Both the position numbers and the translations under genes were made by a program. 9,064 nt of DNA from CBDUXZ01 sp965371325 [NCBI: uncultured bacterium] (GTDB taxonomy: Bacteria; JAUYMQ01): assembly GCA_965371325.1 (NCBI GenBank), contig CBDUXZ010000051.1, positions 1 through 9,064 of the forward strand. The letters run 5' to 3'. The number at the start of each line of letters is the position of its first letter. Within the stretch, counting starts at the first letter, position 1. Shown one piece after another: positions 811 to 9,064 of the stretch. The notes beneath the pieces are model-generated. The model was not told the origin of the DNA. It was given only the letters and a program-made list of their open reading frames with translations, and ran no database searches.

Positions 811-2616
811 ATGGAGCGCCATGGGAACGACTTCTGGAGAGTACCTCTCAGCGCCTTTCTCGGCGTCGTGATTACGTTTGGCGGGTTCAGTTTCGCAGCG
901 GCTGCCGATCCCCGATTGGGAACCGGGGAGCCTCCCAACCCGCCACGCGCAGTCAAGAGCGAATCGACGCGCGCGGGGGAAACGGAAGCAAAACCCGCCA
1001 GGGTCCAGTTCCCCTCGATCAGCAGCCTCACCCCAACCCCTTGCGTGAAACAGGGCGAGATCGTCTCGATAAAGGGGAAGAACCTTGGAGGTCCGGATCA
1101 GTACAACCTGTACATCCAGGCACGCGGGAAGAACCGAATTCCCCTGAAGGTCTCCTCGGGGAGGAACTGGACCAGCACACGCATTCGCGCAAGCGTTCCC
1201 GCCCCATCGCCTTCCCTTCCCCCCGGATCCAACGTCACTGTTGGCTTGACCTCGAAGGGCGGCCAGCAGATCCGAGGCGCCAGTCGAAGCACACAGCTGT
1301 GCGCATCCGAGGGAATTGCCGCACAGGTGAAGCAGGGACTCGTGCCCGGCGCTCCCGCAGCCCCGATTGATGCGTCGCTGGCAAAAAAGGCCGTGAAAGA
1401 CGGGGGCCTGCCCCCGATGGAGACGAAGTCTCTTGAGAAGCCTCCGAGCACGCTTAGGGAGAAGATAAAGCTTGCTCCTGGCGTTCTCACGAAGCCTTTT
1501 GATCCGAACGCGCCAACCTACTGCAATAACCTGACGGCGACCATCAGCGGCACGCCAGGGGACGATGTGCTTCAGGGCACGCCAGGGGATGACATCTTCA
1601 CAGGATTGGCCGGCAACGACAAGATTCAGGGTCTGGGCGGAAACGATGTCATCTGCGGCGGCGAGGGCGACGACGAGCTGTTTGGTGGTCTTGGGAACGA
1701 CCTGATCTTCGGCGAGGGGGGCAACGACAAGCTGAACGGCCAGAATGGTGACGACGAGCTGTACGGGGGTGGGGGCGATGACTACCTGATCGGTGACGCC
1801 GGCGTCGACAAGCTCTTTGGCGACGATGGCAATGACGCCCTCAGAGGCTACGCGGGCACCGACGAGATGCACGGCGGGACCGGCAACGACACGCTCTACG
1901 GCGGGGACGGCGGCGACACCCTGTACGGGGACGCGGGTCTCGACCTCATCTACGGCGAGGGGGGCGGCGACTACATGGAAGGGGGCCCCGACAAGGACGA
2001 GATGTACGGCGGGGACGGCGACGACACACTCAAGGGCCAGGGCGGAAACGATCGGATCAACCCGGGCAAGGGTAACGACATAGCGCATGGCGGAGACGGC
2101 GATGACGAGATCATTGAACTCATCTCCAGCGACGGGAATGACGAGCTCTGGGGTGATGCCGGCAAGGATCACCTGAACGGCGGTTCCGGCGACGATGTAT
2201 TACACGGGGGGGATGACGACGATCAGCTATTCGGCCTGGCGGGGAACGATACCCTCTACGGCGAGGGGGGCAACGACAGCATCGGTGGGTTCGAGGGGGA
2301 TGACGAGGCGCACGGAGGAGCTGGAAACGACGGCATCTACGGCGGACCCGACAACGACCATCTGTACGGCGATGGTGGGAACGACACGATCTGGGGAGAG
2401 AATGGCGGCAACATGACAGGCGACGATTTTCTCTACGGAGGACCCGGAAACGACACGATCTACGGCTGGGCCGGCAAGGACGAGCTGTTCGGTGAGAGCG
2501 GCGACGACACACTCGACGGTATGGATGACAAGGACAAGCTCGACGGAGGCCCAGGCACCGACACTTGCAAGGAGCTCCCGAATGATAGCCTGAAGAGCTG
2601 TGAAATAAAGAACTGA
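811..2616 (+). CDS. Exported RTX-repeat (hemolysin-type calcium-binding) protein with IPT/TIG-like domain
   Basis: This is probably a secreted, calcium-stabilised surface or extracellular protein of unknown activity. The start is fixed by AGGAGA seven bases upstream of ATG 811. Residues 1-32 form a Sec signal peptide (hydrophobic core 12-31, cleavage after AAA near A32). Residues about 69-155 resemble an IPT/TIG immunoglobulin-like fold, opening with SLTPTPCVKQGEIVSIKGKN. A Pro/Lys-rich linker follows. Residues 247-587 are 37 consecutive GGxGxDxLx-type nonapeptides, which bind Ca2+ as a parallel beta-roll. Cysteines cap the roll at C238 and C273-like ICGG on one side and C586/C597 on the other. 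No enzymatic domain is visible. The N-terminal signal argues against classical type I export, and no T1SS genes are adjacent. Adhesion, matrix or surface-layer roles are possible but not shown. Confidence 0.9.
   Translation: MERHGNDFWRVPLSAFLGVVITFGGFSFAAAADPRLGTGEPPNPPRAVKSESTRAGETEAKPARVQFPSISSLTPTPCVKQGEIVSIKGKNLGGPDQYNLYIQARGKNRIPLKVSSGRNWTSTRIRASVPAPSPSLPPGSNVTVGLTSKGGQQIRGASRSTQLCASEGIAAQVKQGLVPGAPAAPIDASLAKKAVKDGGLPPMETKSLEKPPSTLREKIKLAPGVLTKPFDPNAPTYCNNLTATISGTPGDDVLQGTPGDDIFTGLAGNDKIQGLGGNDVICGGEGDDELFGGLGNDLIFGEGGNDKLNGQNGDDELYGGGGDDYLIGDAGVDKLFGDDGNDALRGYAGTDEMHGGTGNDTLYGGDGGDTLYGDAGLDLIYGEGGGDYMEGGPDKDEMYGGDGDDTLKGQGGNDRINPGKGNDIAHGGDGDDEIIELISSDGNDELWGDAGKDHLNGGSGDDVLHGGDDDDQLFGLAGNDTLYGEGGNDSIGGFEGDDEAHGGAGNDGIYGGPDNDHLYGDGGNDTIWGENGGNMTGDDFLYGGPGNDTIYGWAGKDELFGESGDDTLDGMDDKDKLDGGPGTDTCKELPNDSLKSCEIKN
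1549..2571 (+). repeat. DNA encoding 37 tandem RTX nonapeptides
   Basis: A 27-base periodicity encodes residues 247-587 of the RTX protein. Of 37 units, two are lengthened: one at about residue 436 (12 residues, ELISSDGNDELW) and one at about residue 529 (14 residues, GENGGNMTGDDFLY). Several units lack the central glycine (GGPDKD, GGDDDD, GGPDND, GMDDKD). The copies differ at the DNA level, so this is an old, protein-selected repeat and not a recent tandem duplication. Confidence 0.88.
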
Positions 2617-2722: not shown

Positions 2723-4018
2723 ATGACCAGCAAAATTAGCTCCGGCGAAATCGATGCCACTTCCCGGGCCCGTGAATTTCTCGACCGACGCCTCGCGGAA
2801 TCGCTAACCGGCCATCTGCGGAATCCAGCACCACGCTACGGGCCTCACGGTCGGGTTCTGCGCACGGATCGCGTTCATGTCGCAGCCCTGGCAAGACGCG
2901 TCTGTCTCTTGCGAGCCATTCACCGCGGAGGCGGCCCGGAGGTTTTGGATGTTGGCGGGGGATTCGGAGAGCTCGCAGCACTCGTTCGCAACACTCTCGG
3001 CAGATCCGTCTTCTTGCAGGACCTCTCACCCGCATTCCTGTTATTTGCGCAAATCTGGATGCGCGTCCAACCCGTTTGCGGCGACGCCGCGGCTCTCCCC
3101 TTTAGATCCCACAGCTTTGGAACGGTCGTTTGCTCCGAAGTGGTTGAGCACGCGGAGCGGCCGGTCCTGATTTTTCTCGAACTCTCCCGGGTGGCCCGTG
3201 AGACGATGATGGTCTCCACCGATATTTGTTGTCCTACGCGGTGGGAGTATTCCCTCCGGATGGCCACAGCGGACCGTCGGTCCGAGTTCGGCGATCGAAA
3301 CTGGTACCTTCCGGAGCATTTTAGGGTGCTGATGGGCGCAGACACGACTCTTTCCGCGAGCCTCGCGTCGCCGCGCCGGACTCATGGGTGGAAGATCAAG
3401 CACCTTTCGGACCTGTCCGACCTCGTGGAGGTGCTCTCGGTGGAGCAACCCTATTTCGCCGGAGCCGGAGGCATCATGGCCGTGCGCGGGGCGAAGGAGG
3501 TCCAGGTCACGGCGGACAGGGAGCTGGTGGCGCAGGTGATCGAGAACGATCGCGAAGCAGGGGCCAATTTTCTCGAGGCAGCACGAAAGACCCTCGACAT
3601 CCTGGAGGGTAGAGAGAGACCCCCGGACGAGCCACCCAACCTGAAAATGCTCTGCTGCCCATCGTCAAATTGCCAGGGCGCGCTCCATCCGGAGTCTCCT
3701 TCCTGTTTGGTCTGCGCAGGCTGTGGAACTCGCTACGAGAAGCGGTGGGGTATCCCCCTGCTGCATCCCCCTACGCATGCCACGCTGGAGGATGCCCTCG
3801 TCGGCATCCCGTCCGTGCGCGCACAGGCCATCCGTGCCCTGGCGCGTGAGATTGAACGGGGAGCACGGGCCCAATGGGCCGAGCTGTTTGTGTGGGCGTT
3901 CCTGGGCGCCATCGGGTTTTTCCGTCTTCGCGTGGGGCTTCGTGAAAGAGCCCGAATTCTATATGGCTGGTGTAGGGACGCGCTTACCGGGACGAAAGAT
4001 CCGGGAGCCGAAGAGTGA
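2723..4018 (+). CDS. SAM-dependent class I methyltransferase with C-terminal Trm112-like zinc ribbon
   Basis: Predicted to move a methyl group from S-adenosylmethionine to an unknown substrate. Residues about 70-170 are a Methyltransf_11/25-type Rossmann fold. Motif I is EVLDVGGGFGEL (73-84), then LQDLSP. CGDAAALPF (119-127) gives the acidic motif, and SEVVEH (138-143) is the usual post-motif. Residues 307-349 look like a Trm112p zinc ribbon (C312, C317, C331, C334, then CGTRYEKRWGIPLLHP). The first knuckle is C-x4-C (CPSSNC), where C-x2-C is usual. A hydrophobic or amphipathic stretch near 385-408 may touch the membrane. The start at 2723 has only a weak ribosome binding site, but the homologous region begins well inside. 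It lies 106 bases after the RTX gene and 9 bases before a radical SAM remnant in the same frame. The substrate cannot be inferred. Confidence 0.88.
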   Translation: MTSKISSGEIDATSRAREFLDRRLAESLTGHLRNPAPRYGPHGRVLRTDRVHVAALARRVCLLRAIHRGGGPEVLDVGGGFGELAALVRNTLGRSVFLQDLSPAFLLFAQIWMRVQPVCGDAAALPFRSHSFGTVVCSEVVEHAERPVLIFLELSRVARETMMVSTDICCPTRWEYSLRMATADRRSEFGDRNWYLPEHFRVLMGADTTLSASLASPRRTHGWKIKHLSDLSDLVEVLSVEQPYFAGAGGIMAVRGAKEVQVTADRELVAQVIENDREAGANFLEAARKTLDILEGRERPPDEPPNLKMLCCPSSNCQGALHPESPSCLVCAGCGTRYEKRWGIPLLHPPTHATLEDALVGIPSVRAQAIRALAREIERGARAQWAELFVWAFLGAIGFFRLRVGLRERARILYGWCRDALTGTKDPGAEE

Positions 4019-4258: not shown

Positions 4259-4411
4259 AGGCGTTTCAATGATACGCCGGGTTCATCCGATCGGGCCGGT
4301 CCGATATAGGCGTACCCTGGCTTGCGCGCAGTTCAACCTATCTAGTATCTTCGGATGGCGCGCTTGCCGCCGAGGCAGCGCTCGATAGGCTCTCCATTCA
4401 GGCGAGGCGTG

Positions 4412-5551
4412 ATGTTCCACTACGAAGGGGCCCTGCCGCATCTTCTCTCTCCCAGAGATTACTACGACGAAGCCCCCTATCAACGGGAGATAGAAGCACT
4501 GTTCCGCCCGAGTTGGCGATTGCTGGGACTTCTCGAAGATGTTCCCCGGCCGGGGGATTACCTGGCGAGGGACGTTCTCGGCGTGCCGGTGCTACTTCGT
4601 AACCTGGATGGTGAGTTGCACGCGTACAAAAATGTGTGCCCGCACCGCCATTGCCTCGTCCTCCCGTACGGGAAAGGGCATGCACCCTCCTTCAGGTGTC
4701 AATACCATGGGTGGGAATTCGGGGCGGAGGGCCGGATCAGCAAGATACCCGATGGAATATCGTTCAAGGGCCTACGTGCGAGAGAACTCTGCCTGGAAAG
4801 GTACCGACTCAGCATGCTGGGGTCGCTCGTATTCGTGAACCTGTCGCCTGGCAGCGAGTCTTTTCTGGAATCCGTGGGTGACATCGCTCCAGATCTCGAA
4901 CGGTTCTATGAGAACCACCGGCCGTTCATGGTGAAGGCGACTGAACACGCAGTTAACTGGAAGGTGATCGCGGAGAATGCCATTGAGAGCTATCACGTGC
5001 CCGTTACGCACCCGGGCAGCTTCAAGGAATACCGCGATGAGAAGCTTCACGACCACTTGCTGGACATGAAGTTCACCCGGTACCGGGATCTGAAGCCCTG
5101 GGGGAACTCACCGCTGGGACTGAGCTTCAAGATGCTGACCGGAATGATGTTGAAGAACCCCACCTATCAGCGTTTCACGCAGGCGCACCTCTTCCCGAAC
5201 TATCTCCTTTACTACGGTGATCTCTTCTCAAGCTTCATCTCGCTCGAGCCCCTGGGCCCCCAGCGCACCCGGCACTACTTGACCGGGTTTGTCCCGCGCG
5301 AGATCAGGTATCCGCTGATTACCCGCGCCGCCCAGAAGGCGTTCGAGGTGGCCTTCAAGAGAACCGGCTGGAAGATCATCGAGGAAGACATGGCCATTTG
5401 GGATTCGATTCAAAGTGGCCTGAGGAATAGCCATCACAGGGGTGCACTGAGCCGTCGTGAAGAGCGCGTCTACACCTTCCAGAAGTACCTGGTCGAGAAG
5501 CTCGAGGGTCAGTCGACCAACGCAGCGAGTCGCCTGGAACGGGCCAGGTAG
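4412..5551 (+). CDS. Rieske non-heme iron oxygenase, alpha (catalytic) subunit
   Basis: Adds oxygen to an unknown organic substrate, using electrons passed by a reductase/ferredoxin that is not in this window. The Rieske 2Fe-2S site is C76-P-H78, 17 residues, then C96-Q-Y-H99. The mononuclear iron site is H195 and H200 in NWKVIAENAIESYHVPVTHP plus D326 in EEDMAIWDSIQSG. The bridging residue is E192 where naphthalene-type dioxygenases have Asp, as in several monooxygenase-like members (choline monooxygenase type). Total length is 379 residues, normal for the family. I chose ATG 4412 (MFHYEG), with GAGG just upstream. The frame also has ATG 4355, but its 19 extra residues are basic, unlike the family, and lack a ribosome binding site. 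No beta subunit is adjacent, suggesting an alpha-only oxygenase. It probably belongs with the upstream methyltransferase. Confidence 0.9.
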   Translation: MFHYEGALPHLLSPRDYYDEAPYQREIEALFRPSWRLLGLLEDVPRPGDYLARDVLGVPVLLRNLDGELHAYKNVCPHRHCLVLPYGKGHAPSFRCQYHGWEFGAEGRISKIPDGISFKGLRARELCLERYRLSMLGSLVFVNLSPGSESFLESVGDIAPDLERFYENHRPFMVKATEHAVNWKVIAENAIESYHVPVTHPGSFKEYRDEKLHDHLLDMKFTRYRDLKPWGNSPLGLSFKMLTGMMLKNPTYQRFTQAHLFPNYLLYYGDLFSSFISLEPLGPQRTRHYLTGFVPREIRYPLITRAAQKAFEVAFKRTGWKIIEEDMAIWDSIQSGLRNSHHRGALSRREERVYTFQKYLVEKLEGQSTNAASRLERAR

Positions 5552-5655: not shown

Positions 5656-5671
5656 CCCTGGGCTAACAGGG
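5656..5671. terminator. Small hairpin between convergent genes (weak terminator candidate)
   Basis: CCCTG-GGCTAA-CAGGG forms a 5-bp stem with a 6-base loop, extendable by a few pairs past one mismatch. It lies between the ends of the rightward Rieske gene and the leftward MerB operon. No T-run follows on either strand, so intrinsic termination is doubtful. Elsewhere in 5552-5662 I see no gene, promoter or repeat. Confidence 0.2.
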
Positions 5672-5890
5672 TTCTACCCACTGGAGAGGGGCAATTGGGG
5701 GGTCGAGATCGCCTGCAAGCCCCCGGACGGGATCTTTACCCTCGTATCCGAAATGGCTGGCCCGGCCAAGTGAGGTGTAAATAACACGGGAAGGAACATC
5801 AAGAATAACTCCGCCAAATGCCGCGAGCGCAACAATCCCGTACAGAATGTTCTGGTTGCGATCAATCCCGGTTAGCCAGAGTCTCGACTC
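5663..5890 (-). pseudogene. Start-less open frame for a small membrane protein, possible fourth operon member
   Basis: Just after the four-helix membrane gene, and overlapping its end in another frame, 75 codons are open from the TGA at 5893-5891 to TAG 5665-5663. From 5866 the reading is IDRNQNILYGIVALAAFGGV, then ILDVPSRVIYTSLGR, ending in a Gly/Asp/Pro-rich tail (LDPPIAPLQWVEPC). It has one clear membrane helix (about ILYGIVALAAFGGVIL) and a soluble C-terminus. There is no ATG, GTG or TTG in frame at the front. The natural start would be ATT at 5866-5864, as if an original ATG had mutated or a rare ATT start is used. There is no ribosome binding site. GC at third positions is lower than in neighbouring genes. 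It may be a decayed gene or chance; no family is recognised. Confidence 0.33.
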
Positions 5891-6435
5891 TCAGCTGGCT
5901 GTACGCGCTTCCTCCAACTAGCCTCCCAGGCATCGATACCGCTTAAGGGACCCGCCGGGCAGTAGTGCTCTGCGGTCTCGTGTCCCGACATCATCATCCA
6001 GAGGTACGGTATGGCGCGCATTTCGCAACCCGGTGTCCCTATGGCGCTCGAAAGGATAAAGGAAATTCCGAGATGGACGTACACGTACAACAGCCACAAG
6101 AAGACAAACCAACCTAACGGTGGGCCCCACAGCTTCCCGTTGGAAAAAAGACTCAGCAGCGCCATTGCCATAGCGGCGGCGATGACGAGCAGCTGAGGGC
6201 GGCGACCCCACGAACACGTGAAGCCGATATTGATAATGTACGAGAACAGATGGAACCCCAGAAACATCATGACCCAGAGGCCCGGGGCATCGGGCACTCG
6301 GGAGATCACGCGTTCCGAGCAGTATGCCAGGAGGCTGAAGACAAAATAGAGGCACCCGACCCCAAATACGAACCGCGTGAGCCGCCCCACGGGTCCGGGA
6401 CGCTCGAGCGATCCTGGCTTTTGGAATCGGGCCAT
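5872..6435 (-). CDS. Four-helix inner-membrane protein in the MerB operon, unknown family
   Basis: A 187-residue protein with predicted helices at about 20-38, 52-72, 81-97 and 107-132, a basic N-terminus (residues 3-21) and a C-terminal tail of about 50 residues. Cysteines lie at C28 and C39 (in or at the end of helix 1), C74 (after helix 2, GFTCSWGRRP), C137 (GCEMRAIPYLW) and C159 (ETAEHYCPAGPL). It is co-directional with merB, 13 bases downstream of the merB stop, with only a weak ribosome binding site, so translation is probably coupled. MerT, MerC and MerF also use membrane cysteines to carry Hg(II). However, the paired adjacent cysteines of MerT are absent and I cannot assign this to any of them. 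A transport or membrane-anchoring role is inferred from position only. Confidence 0.8.
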   Translation of the reverse strand: MARFQKPGSLERPGPVGRLTRFVFGVGCLYFVFSLLAYCSERVISRVPDAPGLWVMMFLGFHLFSYIINIGFTCSWGRRPQLLVIAAAMAMALLSLFSNGKLWGPPLGWFVFLWLLYVYVHLGISFILSSAIGTPGCEMRAIPYLWMMMSGHETAEHYCPAGPLSGIDAWEASWRKRVQPAESRDSG

Positions 6436-6448
6436 CTCAGTTATCTAC

Positions 6449-7138
6449 TCAGCCCTCAGATGGGGGCAGGTTCAAAACGTCTGGATATTGGATCTGGTTC
6501 TTCCTTCGGCCCAGGTTGTAGGCGTCTTCGATCGAAAGCAGGAAGGTTCCCTTGTTTTCCGAGACCCACTGGCCTCCCGTCTCGGGCGAGGGAAAGAAAT
6601 AGATGTAGTGACAGAAGTTCGACACGATGTTCTCGATAATGCTCGTCGCGTCCGTCGTGAGAAACGACGTGACCGCGTCGCTTGGATCCAGCTCCTTCAC
6701 GCCATCGGGCTCCACCGTCAGGCGGATCTTGGACCCGGTCACGGGACAGGTGGATTGCACGCGCGCCGGCTTTCCGAGGATGTCCGGGATGAAGAGGGTA
6801 TCCCAGCTGCACCACGTGTAAAGGCGGATGCCCTCCACGTCCATGGCATGTGAGGTCGGCTTGAGCGACAGCCCCCAGAACGCGACAACCCGGCCCCCAT
6901 CGTCGCAAAAGACCCCGGGCCTTCGACCCAGCGTTTCCTCCACCTTCTCGACGGGCGATTGGAGCTTCGCGCTCAGCTCGGCGGGGGAGATCGGGTTTCC
7001 GCGTGCCAGCAGCCGCGTGAGCATCACGGCGAAACGCTGATCCTCCGGGAACATCTTCGGGAAGAGCGGGGAGAGCGCACCCTCCAGCTCATCCAAATCC
7101 TGCGCCTTCAGGTTCATGTAGTTTTCTTCCGTTTTCAT
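6449..7138 (-). CDS. merB: Organomercurial (alkylmercury) lyase
   Basis: MerB cleaves the carbon-mercury bond of compounds such as methyl- or phenylmercury by protonolysis, giving Hg(II) and the hydrocarbon, in the cytoplasm. The 229-residue product is close to the family's usual length of about 210-220. Residues about 33-70 form the N-terminal winged-helix-like part. The catalytic set is C110 and D113 in YTWCSWDTLFIPDILG (C96/D99 of the classical R831b enzyme) and C176 in NFCHYIYFF (C159). C131 in STCPVTG matches the structural C117. The Asp form is the mercury-active type. ATG 7138 has AGGGAGG five bases upstream, preferred over the in-frame ATG at 7117. It lies 29 bases after the thioredoxin-fold gene and 13 before the membrane gene. 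No mercuric reductase (merA) is visible, so the fate of the released Hg(II) is unclear. Confidence 0.9.
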   Translation of the reverse strand: MKTEENYMNLKAQDLDELEGALSPLFPKMFPEDQRFAVMLTRLLARGNPISPAELSAKLQSPVEKVEETLGRRPGVFCDDGGRVVAFWGLSLKPTSHAMDVEGIRLYTWCSWDTLFIPDILGKPARVQSTCPVTGSKIRLTVEPDGVKELDPSDAVTSFLTTDATSIIENIVSNFCHYIYFFPSPETGGQWVSENKGTFLLSIEDAYNLGRRKNQIQYPDVLNLPPSEG

Positions 7139-7167
7139 CAGAACCTCCCTGCGGTCAGTCTGGACTC

Positions 7168-7482
7168 CTAAGGCTTCGAATGTTTTCTGCTCATGCGCTC
7201 CAGGGCCGCGACCAGCAGTTCCCGTTGTGGAACTCCGGATGCGCCGTAGGTTCGACAGGCGAGAGCAAACTGCGTGCGAAACTTCATGTCCGGGTCGATG
7301 TCAACGCCGTTCACACGCACGGTCGGAGAGCCGGGAAACCGAAGCCTCTGTGCATCTTCGTCGTCGCGGACTTCGACTTCCTCAATTTCTTCGGAGATTC
7401 CCATCTCCGACAGTACGCTCCGGGCCAAGGCAAGGGTCGCATCGAGATTAGGACACCCCTCGAAATAGAGAATTTGGATCAC
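7168..7482 (-). CDS. Thioredoxin-fold protein with single CPN cysteine, first gene of the MerB operon
   Basis: A 104-residue cytoplasmic protein of the thioredoxin-like group that often sits beside merB. Strand 1 leads into YFEGCPNLD with C10 at the position of the first CxxC cysteine. The resolving cysteine is replaced (C-P-N-L). RFPGSPTVRVNG carries the cis-proline (P53), followed by the acidic GVDIDPD. A second conserved cysteine, C76, is in LACRTYG, and GVP follows. It starts at GTG 7482, with GAGGAGG seven bases upstream. It is the first gene after the MerR-type promoter. A role in holding or passing mercury or a thiol to or from MerB is an inference from context. One Cys at the active site fits thiol binding better than disulfide exchange. 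Confidence 0.87.
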   Translation of the reverse strand: MIQILYFEGCPNLDATLALARSVLSEMGISEEIEEVEVRDDEDAQRLRFPGSPTVRVNGVDIDPDMKFRTQFALACRTYGASGVPQRELLVAALERMSRKHSKP

Positions 7483-7566
7483 GGCAAGTCCTCCTCAATC
7501 CAGCGTGTGCTTCTCATCCCCCGACGACGATGACTCAGCCGGGGACCTCGAGAAGATAGTCCGGCA

Positions 7567-7598
7567 ATCCTACACGTTGAACCCGGGTTCAATGTCAA
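7567..7598 (-). promoter_or_regulatory. MerR-family-type promoter/operator of the MerB operon
   Basis: Read leftward: TTGACA (7598-7593), a 20-base spacer, TAGGAT (7572-7567). The spacer begins with the perfect 16-bp palindrome TTGAACCCGGGTTCAA (7592-7577). A spacer of 19-20 bases with the dyad between -35 and -10 is the hallmark of promoters activated by DNA untwisting by MerR-family proteins. The expected transcription start is near 7560, giving a leader of about 78 bases before GTG 7482. The palindrome is not the classical GTAC-centred mer operator, so the regulator may be a different MerR-family member. No regulator gene is in the window. Confidence 0.7.
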
Positions 7599-7835: not shown

Positions 7836-9064
7836 ATGGATGACTCTCCGCTCTCTTCCACATCCCGGAATGTTGCAACACTTCTGAGCTCTTCCGAGCT
7901 GTTCGGCGGCCTTGACGAATCCATTCTTCGGGAATTCGAGGATCGCCTCGAGTGGGTACATCTCTCCGGCGGAGAGACGCTCATGCGCGAGGGGGACCCC
8001 GCGGATTGCTTCTATATCCTTATCAGCGGCCGGCTTCGCGTGATGGTGGAACAAGCGGGCAATAAAGAAGTGGCAGTCGGCGAAGTGGGGCGCGGTGAGG
8101 TGGTGGGAGAGATGGCTATTCTCACTGACGAGCCAAGGTCCGCCACGGTCATCGCCATTCGTGACAGCGAACTCATGATGTTTTCAAGGGAGGAATTCGA
8201 ACGCCTGCTCGAAATGCACCCGCAGGCCATGATGAGGATCGCGCGGCAGATCGTTGTCCGCCTCCGGCGAAGCATCCAGTCCAAACAAGCGCCAAGTAAG
8301 GAGTTTAGCCTTACTGTCATTCCTGCCGGGCAGGAAGCGCCGGTCACTCCCTTTATAGACGGGCTTGCCGAGGCGCTCGGCCGGCTCGGACCCACCCTCG
8401 TTCTCGACAGCAAACGGGTCGATGGACAACTGGGGCGCGGCGCCGCAAACACGCCCCAGCACGGGCCGAACAACAACAGGATTCTGAGCTGGCTGAACGA
8501 GCTGGAGGCGAAGCACCAGTACGTGATCTACCAGACGGACCCCACCTCCTCGAACTGGACGCGCCGCTGCCTCCGGCAGGCCGACCGTGTGCTCGCCGTT
8601 GGCCGCGCCGGAAGCGATCCGGGGCTGAACAAGATCGAAGAGGACATCCTGCGACATGGCGCCAGGGAGACCTTCGCCCGGGCGCATCTGATCCTCCTGC
8701 ATGAAGAGAGCGAAAAACGTCCATCTCAAACGCAGGCCTGGCTGGAGGGGCGGCAGGTCGACGGCTCCCATCACGTCCGGCTTCACTCCAATGATGATTT
8801 CAAGCGCCTCGCGCGGCTGCTCACAGGCCGGGCCTTCGGGCTGGTCCTTGGGGGCGGCGGCGCGCGGGGCCTGGCACACGTCGGCGTGATTCGCGCAATT
8901 CAGGAAGCGGGAATACCGATCGACGCGATCGGTGGAACAAGCATGGGCGCGATTATTGCGGCGAACTTTGCGATGGATTCCAACATCGACAGATCAAGAG
9001 AGATGTGCAAGTCTTCTTTCGTGGAGGCAGGGCCCCTCTTTGATTTCACTTTTCCCGCGGTTGC
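7836..9064 (+). CDS. Cyclic-nucleotide-binding/patatin-like phospholipase (NTE type), 3' part missing (right edge)
   Basis: Likely a serine lipase/lysophospholipase controlled by a cyclic nucleotide; 409 codons are present of the usual 550-600. Residues about 12-130 are a cNMP-binding domain. The phosphate-binding cassette GEMAILTDEPRSATV (91-105) keeps the ligand residues E92 and R101. A conserved middle region (about 148-330) resembles the linker of bacterial NTE/RssA-like proteins. The patatin domain starts at about 334, with the oxyanion-hole motif GGGGARG (339-345) and the nucleophile S369 in GGTSMG (366-371). The catalytic Asp of the Ser-Asp dyad lies beyond the edge. ATG 7836 has GGGAG ten bases upstream; the frame is open further up without a better start. 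It diverges from the MerB operon, with no functional link evident. Confidence 0.92.
   Translation, partial: MDDSPLSSTSRNVATLLSSSELFGGLDESILREFEDRLEWVHLSGGETLMREGDPADCFYILISGRLRVMVEQAGNKEVAVGEVGRGEVVGEMAILTDEPRSATVIAIRDSELMMFSREEFERLLEMHPQAMMRIARQIVVRLRRSIQSKQAPSKEFSLTVIPAGQEAPVTPFIDGLAEALGRLGPTLVLDSKRVDGQLGRGAANTPQHGPNNNRILSWLNELEAKHQYVIYQTDPTSSNWTRRCLRQADRVLAVGRAGSDPGLNKIEEDILRHGARETFARAHLILLHEESEKRPSQTQAWLEGRQVDGSHHVRLHSNDDFKRLARLLTGRAFGLVLGGGGARGLAHVGVIRAIQEAGIPIDAIGGTSMGAIIAANFAMDSNIDRSREMCKSSFVEAGPLFDFTFPAV

What the first reader, a model, noticed from the sequence alone, without database searches (positions are those of the whole stretch)
5663..7598. Non-canonical MerB operon without merA, merR, merT or merP
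A MerR-type promoter drives a thioredoxin-fold protein, MerB and an unassigned four-helix membrane protein, in that order and with gaps of 29 and 13 bases. Classical broad-spectrum mer operons couple MerB to the MerA reductase and MerT/MerP transport. Here Hg(II) released by MerB has no visible reductase. The unit may export, sequester or pass on mercury, or act on another organometal. The gene content is seen directly, the MerB role is established, and the system-level role is inference.
Basis: partly seen in the sequence, partly recalled or inferred. Interest (0 to 1): 0.65.

Follow-up and report, generated by a model that had tools for sequence, protein, structure and literature searches.

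The report
MerA-free organomercury operon with thioredoxin-like partner
A small bacterial operon pairs the enzyme that breaks carbon-mercury bonds with a thioredoxin-like protein and a new membrane protein instead of the usual mercury reductase, and the same three genes recur in a distant bacterium, which suggests a different way of getting rid of the mercury.

Summary
On the minus strand, behind one MerR-type promoter (7567-7598), lie a thioredoxin-like protein of the 'DF (seleno)protein' family (7168-7482), a MerB with all four signature residues (6449-7138) and a four-helix membrane protein, TM (5872-6435). No merA, merR, merT or merP was found in the 9-kb window; no genome is held, so a distant merA cannot be excluded. 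MerB without merA is already published (Christakis 2021). New here: (1) one actinobacterial genome has the same three genes in one operon (MerB-DF-TM, gaps -4 and +2 nt) behind a like promoter, with no MerA over the family cut-off in its assembly; (2) DF is a recurrent MerB partner: 7 of 17 MerB-family places in 69 DF-bearing genomes lie within 1 kb of DF, and DF or MerB occur fused with each other, with MerT and with HMA domains; (3) the two conserved DF cysteines (C10, C76) are TGA (selenocysteine) positions in other lineages. Best reading: MerR-controlled organomercurial detoxification in which DF takes Hg(II) from MerB and TM, with a conserved tail cysteine pair, is the outlet. The MerB-DF partnership is well supported; Hg(II) hand-over and export are inference.

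The parts
7567..7598 (-). MerR-type promoter TTGACATTGAACCCGGGTTCAACGTGTAGGAT (20-nt spacer, dyad over the spacer), 84 nt before the DF start codon
   Evidence: 23 of 32 bases shared with the promoter of the actinobacterial cassette L277:7355-7386
7168..7482 (-). DF-family thioredoxin-like protein, 104 aa, conserved C10 (GCPN), S52-P53 and C76 (CRxY)
   Evidence: NF049942 113.8 bits over cut-off 70; fold model; columns C10 and C76 hold Cys or an in-frame TGA in 94 and 93 of 95 aligned DF domains
6449..7138 (-). MerB organomercurial lyase, 229 aa, all four signature residues kept (C110, D113, C131, C176)
   Evidence: PF03243 108.3 bits; PDB alkylmercury lyase E 1e-30; nearest MerB found is 50% identical, in a Nitrospirae MAG
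5872..6435 (-). TM: four-helix membrane protein, 187 aa, tail TPGCE...C...IDxWEA with C137 and C159 conserved in 3 of 3 members
   Evidence: (low-confidence model, pLDDT 58.5); homolog L277:8438-9001 34% identical

Best explanation
An organomercurial-detoxification operon induced through a MerR-family regulator encoded elsewhere. MerB cleaves the carbon-mercury bond (family knowledge; catalytic residues present). The DF protein, a thioredoxin-like domain whose working residues are C10 and C76, takes the thiol-bound Hg(II) from MerB, standing in for the NmerA/MerA acceptor (inferred). The four-helix TM protein, which carries a conserved cysteine pair in its predicted cytoplasmic tail, receives Hg(II) and moves it out of the cell (inferred; weakest step). 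Shown: gene identities, promoter, one recurrence of the three-gene cassette, and recurrent DF-MerB linkage and fusions. Inferred: metal specificity, hand-over, direction of transport.
For: Cassette MerB-DF-TM in L277 with overlap/gap of -4 and 2 nt and a like promoter 21 nt upstream; no MerA over cut-off in that assembly (best 314.6 of 454.45 bits). 7 of 17 PF03243 places in 69 DF genomes lie within 1 kb of DF (P at most 4e-14 if the places are independent). Fusions: DF(TGA)::MerB-like (L164), DF::MerT::HMA (L185) and, behind DF, MerB::MerT::HMA (L015; L016). MerR-MerB-like-DF on a Pseudonocardia plasmid. Both DF cysteine columns are TGA positions elsewhere; 18 of 20 TGA-DF genomes tested have SelB over the cut-off, against 11 of 19 genomes without a TGA-DF. 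TM cysteine pair C137/C159 in 3 of 3 members.
Against: DF is not confined to mercury loci: only 5 of 78 fetched DF loci have MerB and 4 of 78 MerT nearby; 1 of 6 plasmid and 0 of 5 viral-contig DF loci have MerB; others fuse DF to a low-molecular-weight phosphatase domain. DF also occurs near true MerA (L164, L167, L188), so it does not simply replace it. Only 2 of 80 MerB loci carry DF and 0 of 80 TM. The other clear TM homolog (G834) has no MerB or DF on its 7.2-kb contig. Of the 7 linked MerB places one is a fragment (G1017 contig 144) and one is convergent with DF (L267). A strict MerR-type promoter was found in 5 of 14 other DF loci scanned, not in L015/L016. The DF of L277 is under the family cut-off (54.4 of 70) and its MerB lacks C117. 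Window MerB is just under the NCBIfam cut-offs. No metal was ever tested.
Confidence: 0.5

Rival explanations
1. DF is a redox partner, not a mercury carrier: it keeps the MerB cysteines reduced, or regenerates a low-molecular-weight thiol, and small thiols carry Hg(II) away.
For: Thioredoxin fold; Cys/TGA pair; DF adjoins pyridine-nucleotide-disulfide-oxidoreductase-like flavoproteins in L203 and L234, L191 and L007.
Against: C10 and C76 are not a CxxC pair; in L191, L203 and L234 one regular expression found no CxxxxC motif in the flavoprotein (L007 not tested); fusions with MerT and HMA metal-transfer domains point to metal handling; no flavoprotein among the window proteins scanned.
Confidence: 0.25
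2. A stray or accessory MerB: the host has merA or a complete mer system elsewhere, and this operon only feeds it.
For: The closest MerB (L013) and the next (L014) sit with a MerA over the family cut-off; 76 of 80 MerB loci give some MerA hit (a loose test that also rings for other flavoproteins and HMA domains); DF co-occurs with true MerA in L164, L167, L188.
Against: No MerA over cut-off in the assemblies of G941, G848, G1017, G971, G003 and G004, which carry MerB and DF together, although completeness is not told; G018, with MerB-like and DF, does have one.
Confidence: 0.35
3. The substrate is another organometal or organometalloid, or a MerB-like lyase reaction outside mercury, as proposed for SaoL systems.
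For: DF is fused to phosphatase-like domains that look like arsenate reductase (my reading), and to a MerB-like protein closer to SaoL (90 bits, under its cut-off of 140); the window operator differs from the classical mer dyad (recalled).
Against: Window MerB scores 28.9 bits with SaoL against 186.4 with MerB and keeps the four MerB signature residues; DF fusion with MerT.
Confidence: 0.15
4. TM is an importer of organomercurials (a functional MerT/MerC/MerE), not an outlet.
For: In L015/L016 the same operon place is taken by MerT::HMA fused to MerB; classical organomercurial operons import their substrate (recalled).
Against: No MerT or MerC match in Pfam or NCBIfam; the cysteines in TM1 are not conserved in the family, only the tail pair is.
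Confidence: 0.3

Closest known systems
Broad-spectrum mer operon (merRTPAB)
   Same: MerB with the catalytic residues, MerR-type promoter, a small thiol protein and a membrane protein in one unit
   Different: no merA, merR, merT or merP found within 9 kb; a DF protein and an unrelated four-helix protein instead
MerB-only genomes (Christakis et al. 2021, PMC8261052; abstract and passages seen)
   Same: MerB without MerA, Hg(II) outlet unknown
   Different: here a specific three-gene cassette with a candidate Hg(II) acceptor and membrane partner is named and found in two lineages; the window's own genome could not be checked
Hypothetical (seleno)protein DF, NF049942 (deep-Sep PMC12013277 and review PMC13188914; passages seen)
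   Same: family membership over cut-off; Cys form of the same domain
   Different: given as a hypothetical protein in the passages read; here linked to MerB, MerT and HMA by operons and fusions, with TGA at either of two positions
SAO system with MerB-like SaoL (Haft and Gwadz 2023; paper not held, seen only as cited in PMC13188914)
   Same: MerB-related lyase together with Cys/Sec thioredoxin-like proteins
   Different: window MerB is far closer to MerB than to SaoL; no ABC transporter among the window proteins scanned
MerTP and MerT/CopZ fusions (NF033556, NF045683)
   Same: metal-transfer modules of this kind (under the models' cut-offs) are fused to DF or MerB in L185 and L015
   Different: absent from the window; TM matches no MerT model

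Membership tests
MerB organomercurial lyase | Pfam PF03243 over the gathering score | tested here: met
   108.3 bits, cut-off 27
MerB organomercurial lyase | NCBIfam MerB models over cut-off | tested here: not met
   186.4 of 193 and 173 of 200 bits, a near miss
MerB organomercurial lyase | C96, D99, C117, C159 (R831b numbering; signature as in PMC8261052) | tested here: met
   C110, D113, C131, C176
MerB organomercurial lyase | cleaves organomercurials | not testable with these tools
   needs an enzyme assay
Broad-spectrum mer operon | merA in the operon | tested here: not met
   none in 9 kb; rest of genome not held
Broad-spectrum mer operon | merR next to the operon | tested here: not met
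   no hit with one MerR query and a two-sequence MerR HMM, a limited test
Broad-spectrum mer operon | merT/merP transport genes | tested here: not met
Broad-spectrum mer operon | promoter with over-long spacer and dyad as used by MerR proteins | tested here: met
   TTGACA-20-TAGGAT with dyad
Broad-spectrum mer operon | induction by Hg(II) | not testable with these tools
   needs a reporter test
DF family (seleno)protein NF049942 | score over the family cut-off | tested here: met
   113.8 bits, cut-off 70
DF family (seleno)protein NF049942 | Sec or Cys at the two conserved positions | tested here: met
   Cys at both, C10 and C76
SaoL organometallic lyase | NF040728 over cut-off | tested here: not met
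   28.9 of 140 bits
MerT mercuric transporter | TM matches a MerT model | tested here: not met
   no MerT match in Pfam or NCBIfam up to E 10

The most novel reading that the evidence does not exclude
A MerA-independent organomercury pathway: MerB frees Hg(II), a dedicated thioredoxin-like (elsewhere selenocysteine-containing) DF protein takes it, and a new four-helix membrane protein with an inner-face cysteine pair exports it. This would answer where MerB-only cells put their Hg(II) and would give the orphan DF selenoprotein family its first function.
Probability: 0.28. Interest if true: 0.8.

Novelty: new variant of a known kind. Interest (0 to 1): 0.55.

Why it matters
About half of MerB-bearing genomes lack MerA, and how they dispose of the Hg(II) released by MerB is open (PMC8261052, abstract and passages). 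This cassette names two concrete candidate proteins, found together in two lineages, that can be tested by adding them to MerB in a laboratory strain. It also attaches a recently described selenoprotein family of unknown function (DF) to mercury handling.

Tried and rejected
Own-genome search for merA: no genome held. TM in plasmids and viral contigs: none. TM in 198, 299 and 199 genomes of the phyla of G001, G009 and G003: one weak hit (L104), rejected because the match has 4 stops and lies opposite what I take, from recall, to be an acetyl-CoA carboxylase frame. Of 3 hits among 366 genomes of the phylum of G018, G831 (E 4e-4, partial) is rejected as probable chance: no match with the TM HMM. 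The single-sequence model of TM (pLDDT 58.5) and its PDB search gave nothing usable. Rejected: the MerA-like flavoprotein of L015/L016 as MerA, because it lacks the C-terminal Cys pair and scores 393-394 of 454 bits. Rejected: ORF 5674-5865 as a fourth gene (codon score -0.24). Folding the bases after four DF TGA codons gave hairpins, but no SECIS test was made, so I draw nothing from them. In one search the arsC HMM was built from a wrong frame and is void, and one of four merb2 sequences (L203) was out of frame; MerB calls were rechecked with Pfam, while L203 rests on the one-sequence HMM.

Full report
What is there. The minus strand of the window holds, in order of transcription, DF (7482-7168), MerB (7138-6449) and TM (6435-5872), with gaps of 29 and 13 nt. 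A MerR-type promoter (TTGACA, 20-nt spacer with a dyad, TAGGAT) ends 84 nt before DF. It is the only site of its kind in the window, and 0 of 100 first-order Markov simulations of the window contained one. The same scan found such a site in 5 of 14 other DF loci (L184, L185, L188, L203, L250) and not in L015 or L016. DF has a good-looking ribosome-binding site, TM a weak one (my reading). The TM frame scores best of six by codon usage, though only slightly above zero (0.018 against 0.04 to 0.30 for the six other genes tested), so its reality rests more on its homolog. No MerA, MerT or MerP homolog was found in the window, and no MerR by a limited test.

MerB. PF03243 at 108 bits; the nearest solved structures are alkylmercury lyases (E 1e-30). 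The four residues used as MerB signature in PMC8261052 (passages) are all present. It misses the NCBIfam cut-offs narrowly. Of 202 confirmed relatives in genome contigs the best 80 were kept (two peptide patterns, so not exhaustive). The nearest are 50% (L013, a Nitrospirae MAG with MerT-like, HMA and MerA genes) and 45% (L014, with MerA) identical.

DF. NF049942 at 113.8 bits. AlphaFold2 with eight sequences gives a confident small alpha/beta model (pLDDT 88.7); Foldseek's best matches are thioredoxins and SelW-like proteins, none under E 0.006, and a profile search finds a thioredoxin at E 8e-5. In an alignment of 95 DF domains, including the window and near-duplicates, the C10 column is Cys in 85, TGA in 9 and a gap in 1; the C76 column is Cys in 71, TGA in 22, Pro in 1 and a gap in 1. 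TGA stands at C76 in all 20 loci taken for their flagged TGA from the phylum of G001 (the other 4 from that phylum are Cys), at C10 in 8 of 40 loci from the phylum of G018, at C76 in one and at both in one of 15 domains from the phylum of G003. Of 20 TGA-DF genomes tested, 18 have SelB over the cut-off; the exceptions are G091 (a cut gene at a contig end, 231 of 242 bits) and G440 (none). The control is weak: 11 of 19 genomes without a TGA-DF also have SelB. The TGA-DF genomes of the phylum of G018 were not tested. The deep-Sep paper names DF a hypothetical protein and says it had no TGA homologs in other organisms (passages). By thioredoxin topology (recalled) C10, cis-Pro53 and C76 should meet at one site.

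DF and MerB belong together more often than chance. Three phylum draws were searched for DF: 21 of 294, 36 of 198 and 75 of 296 genomes match at E 0.001 (9, 3 and 39 over the family cut-off; 2 of 14 control genomes ring, none over it). In 69 DF genomes chosen from these lists PF03243 has 17 places in 8 genomes; 7 of the 17 (5 genomes) lie within 1 kb of DF (with the places). With 0.07-0.3% expected per place, P is between 2e-18 and 4e-14, taking the places as independent, which two genomes with two pairs each are not strictly. One of the 7 is a fragment (G1017 contig 144) and in one DF and MerB converge (L267). Of 78 fetched DF loci (80, less L202 and L203, whose genomes were picked for MerB; not all listed places were fetched), 5 have MerB, 4 MerT and 9 a MerR gene nearby. 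Of 6 plasmid DF loci read (32 records match) one has MerB; of 5 viral-contig DF loci none. Fusions: DF(TGA)::MerB-like in L164, on a contig that also holds a MerA end with the C-terminal CC; DF::MerT::HMA in L185; and in two Planctomycetota MAGs MerR, then DF (57 and 55% identical to the window's), then one MerB::MerT::HMA protein of 469 aa (L015) or 468 aa (L016). A Pseudonocardia plasmid has MerR-MerB-like-DF. DF is not only a mercury protein: in L198 and L199 it is fused to a low-molecular-weight phosphatase domain (arsenate-reductase-like is my reading), and most of the fetched DF loci have no MerB.

The three-gene cassette recurs. TM has a homolog in G941, drawn from the phylum of a Nocardioides genome (34% identical, E 1e-21). 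It is the third gene of MerB-DF-TM, all on one strand, MerB and DF overlapping by 4 nt if DF starts at the ATG I chose, DF and TM 2 nt apart. The DF of this cassette scores 54.4 bits, under the family cut-off of 70. A promoter of the same build, sharing 23 of 32 bases, lies 21 nt upstream of MerB. No merR is on that 10.4-kb contig by the local HMM. G941 has no MerA over the family cut-off (best 314.6 of 454.45 bits), but its completeness is not told. Its MerB keeps the counterparts of C96, D99 and C159 but not C117 (my reading). A further TM homolog (G834, 29%) stands without MerB or DF on a 7.2-kb contig. In all, TM was sought in 1,062 genomes (198+299+199+366), with 2 credible hits. The three TM members share C137 in TPGCE/SPGCE, C159 and an IDxWEA-like tail. 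Basic residues at the N-terminus, in the second loop and at the C-terminus suggest that the tail faces the cytoplasm (positive-inside rule, recalled).

How it probably works. MerB frees Hg(II) in the cytoplasm, DF takes it on C10/C76, TM takes it at its tail cysteines and moves it out. The first step follows from family knowledge, the second from operons, fusions and the Cys/TGA columns, and the third from position and the conserved cysteine pair alone. DF near true MerA in L164, L167 and L188 fits a general Hg(II) carrier which can serve either MerA or another outlet.

What is known. MerB without MerA is established (PMC8261052, abstract and passages; PMC12874090, passages). I saw no paper in the held library that links DF to MerB or describes this cassette (searches; I saw the listings and opened passages of four papers). 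Two relevant papers are not held (Haft and Gwadz 2023; Haft and Tolstoy 2025), so the link may be in print there. The verdict is a new variant of the mer theme, with a real chance of a MerA-free outlet.

Noticed in passing
L164-L183 (phylum of G001); L240, L243, L245, L248, L249, L251, L253, L265 (phylum of G018): DF genes with an in-frame TGA: at the C76 column in the first group and at the C10 column in the second, a selenoprotein family whose Sec seems to move between two active positions.
   Followed up: partly
L015:8016-9425, L016:7920-9326: MerB::MerT::HMA three-domain fusion proteins in two Planctomycetota MAGs, behind MerR and DF.
   Followed up: partly
L198:4740-5447, L199:3779-4495: DF fused to a low-molecular-weight phosphatase domain, arsenate-reductase-like by my reading.
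   Followed up: partly
G081 contigs 150, 180, 220; G1017 contig 75: MerB-family reading frames with two in-frame TGA codons each, possibly SaoL-like selenoproteins.
   Followed up: no
L191, L203, L234, L007: DF next to a pyridine-nucleotide-disulfide-oxidoreductase-like flavoprotein; in L191, L203 and L234 no CxxxxC motif was found by one pattern.
   Followed up: partly
window 811-2616, 2723-4018, 4355-5551, 7836-9062: RTX-repeat protein, methyltransferase, Rieske oxygenase alpha subunit, and a cNMP-NTE-patatin protein flank the operon; the host taxon was not identified.
   Followed up: no
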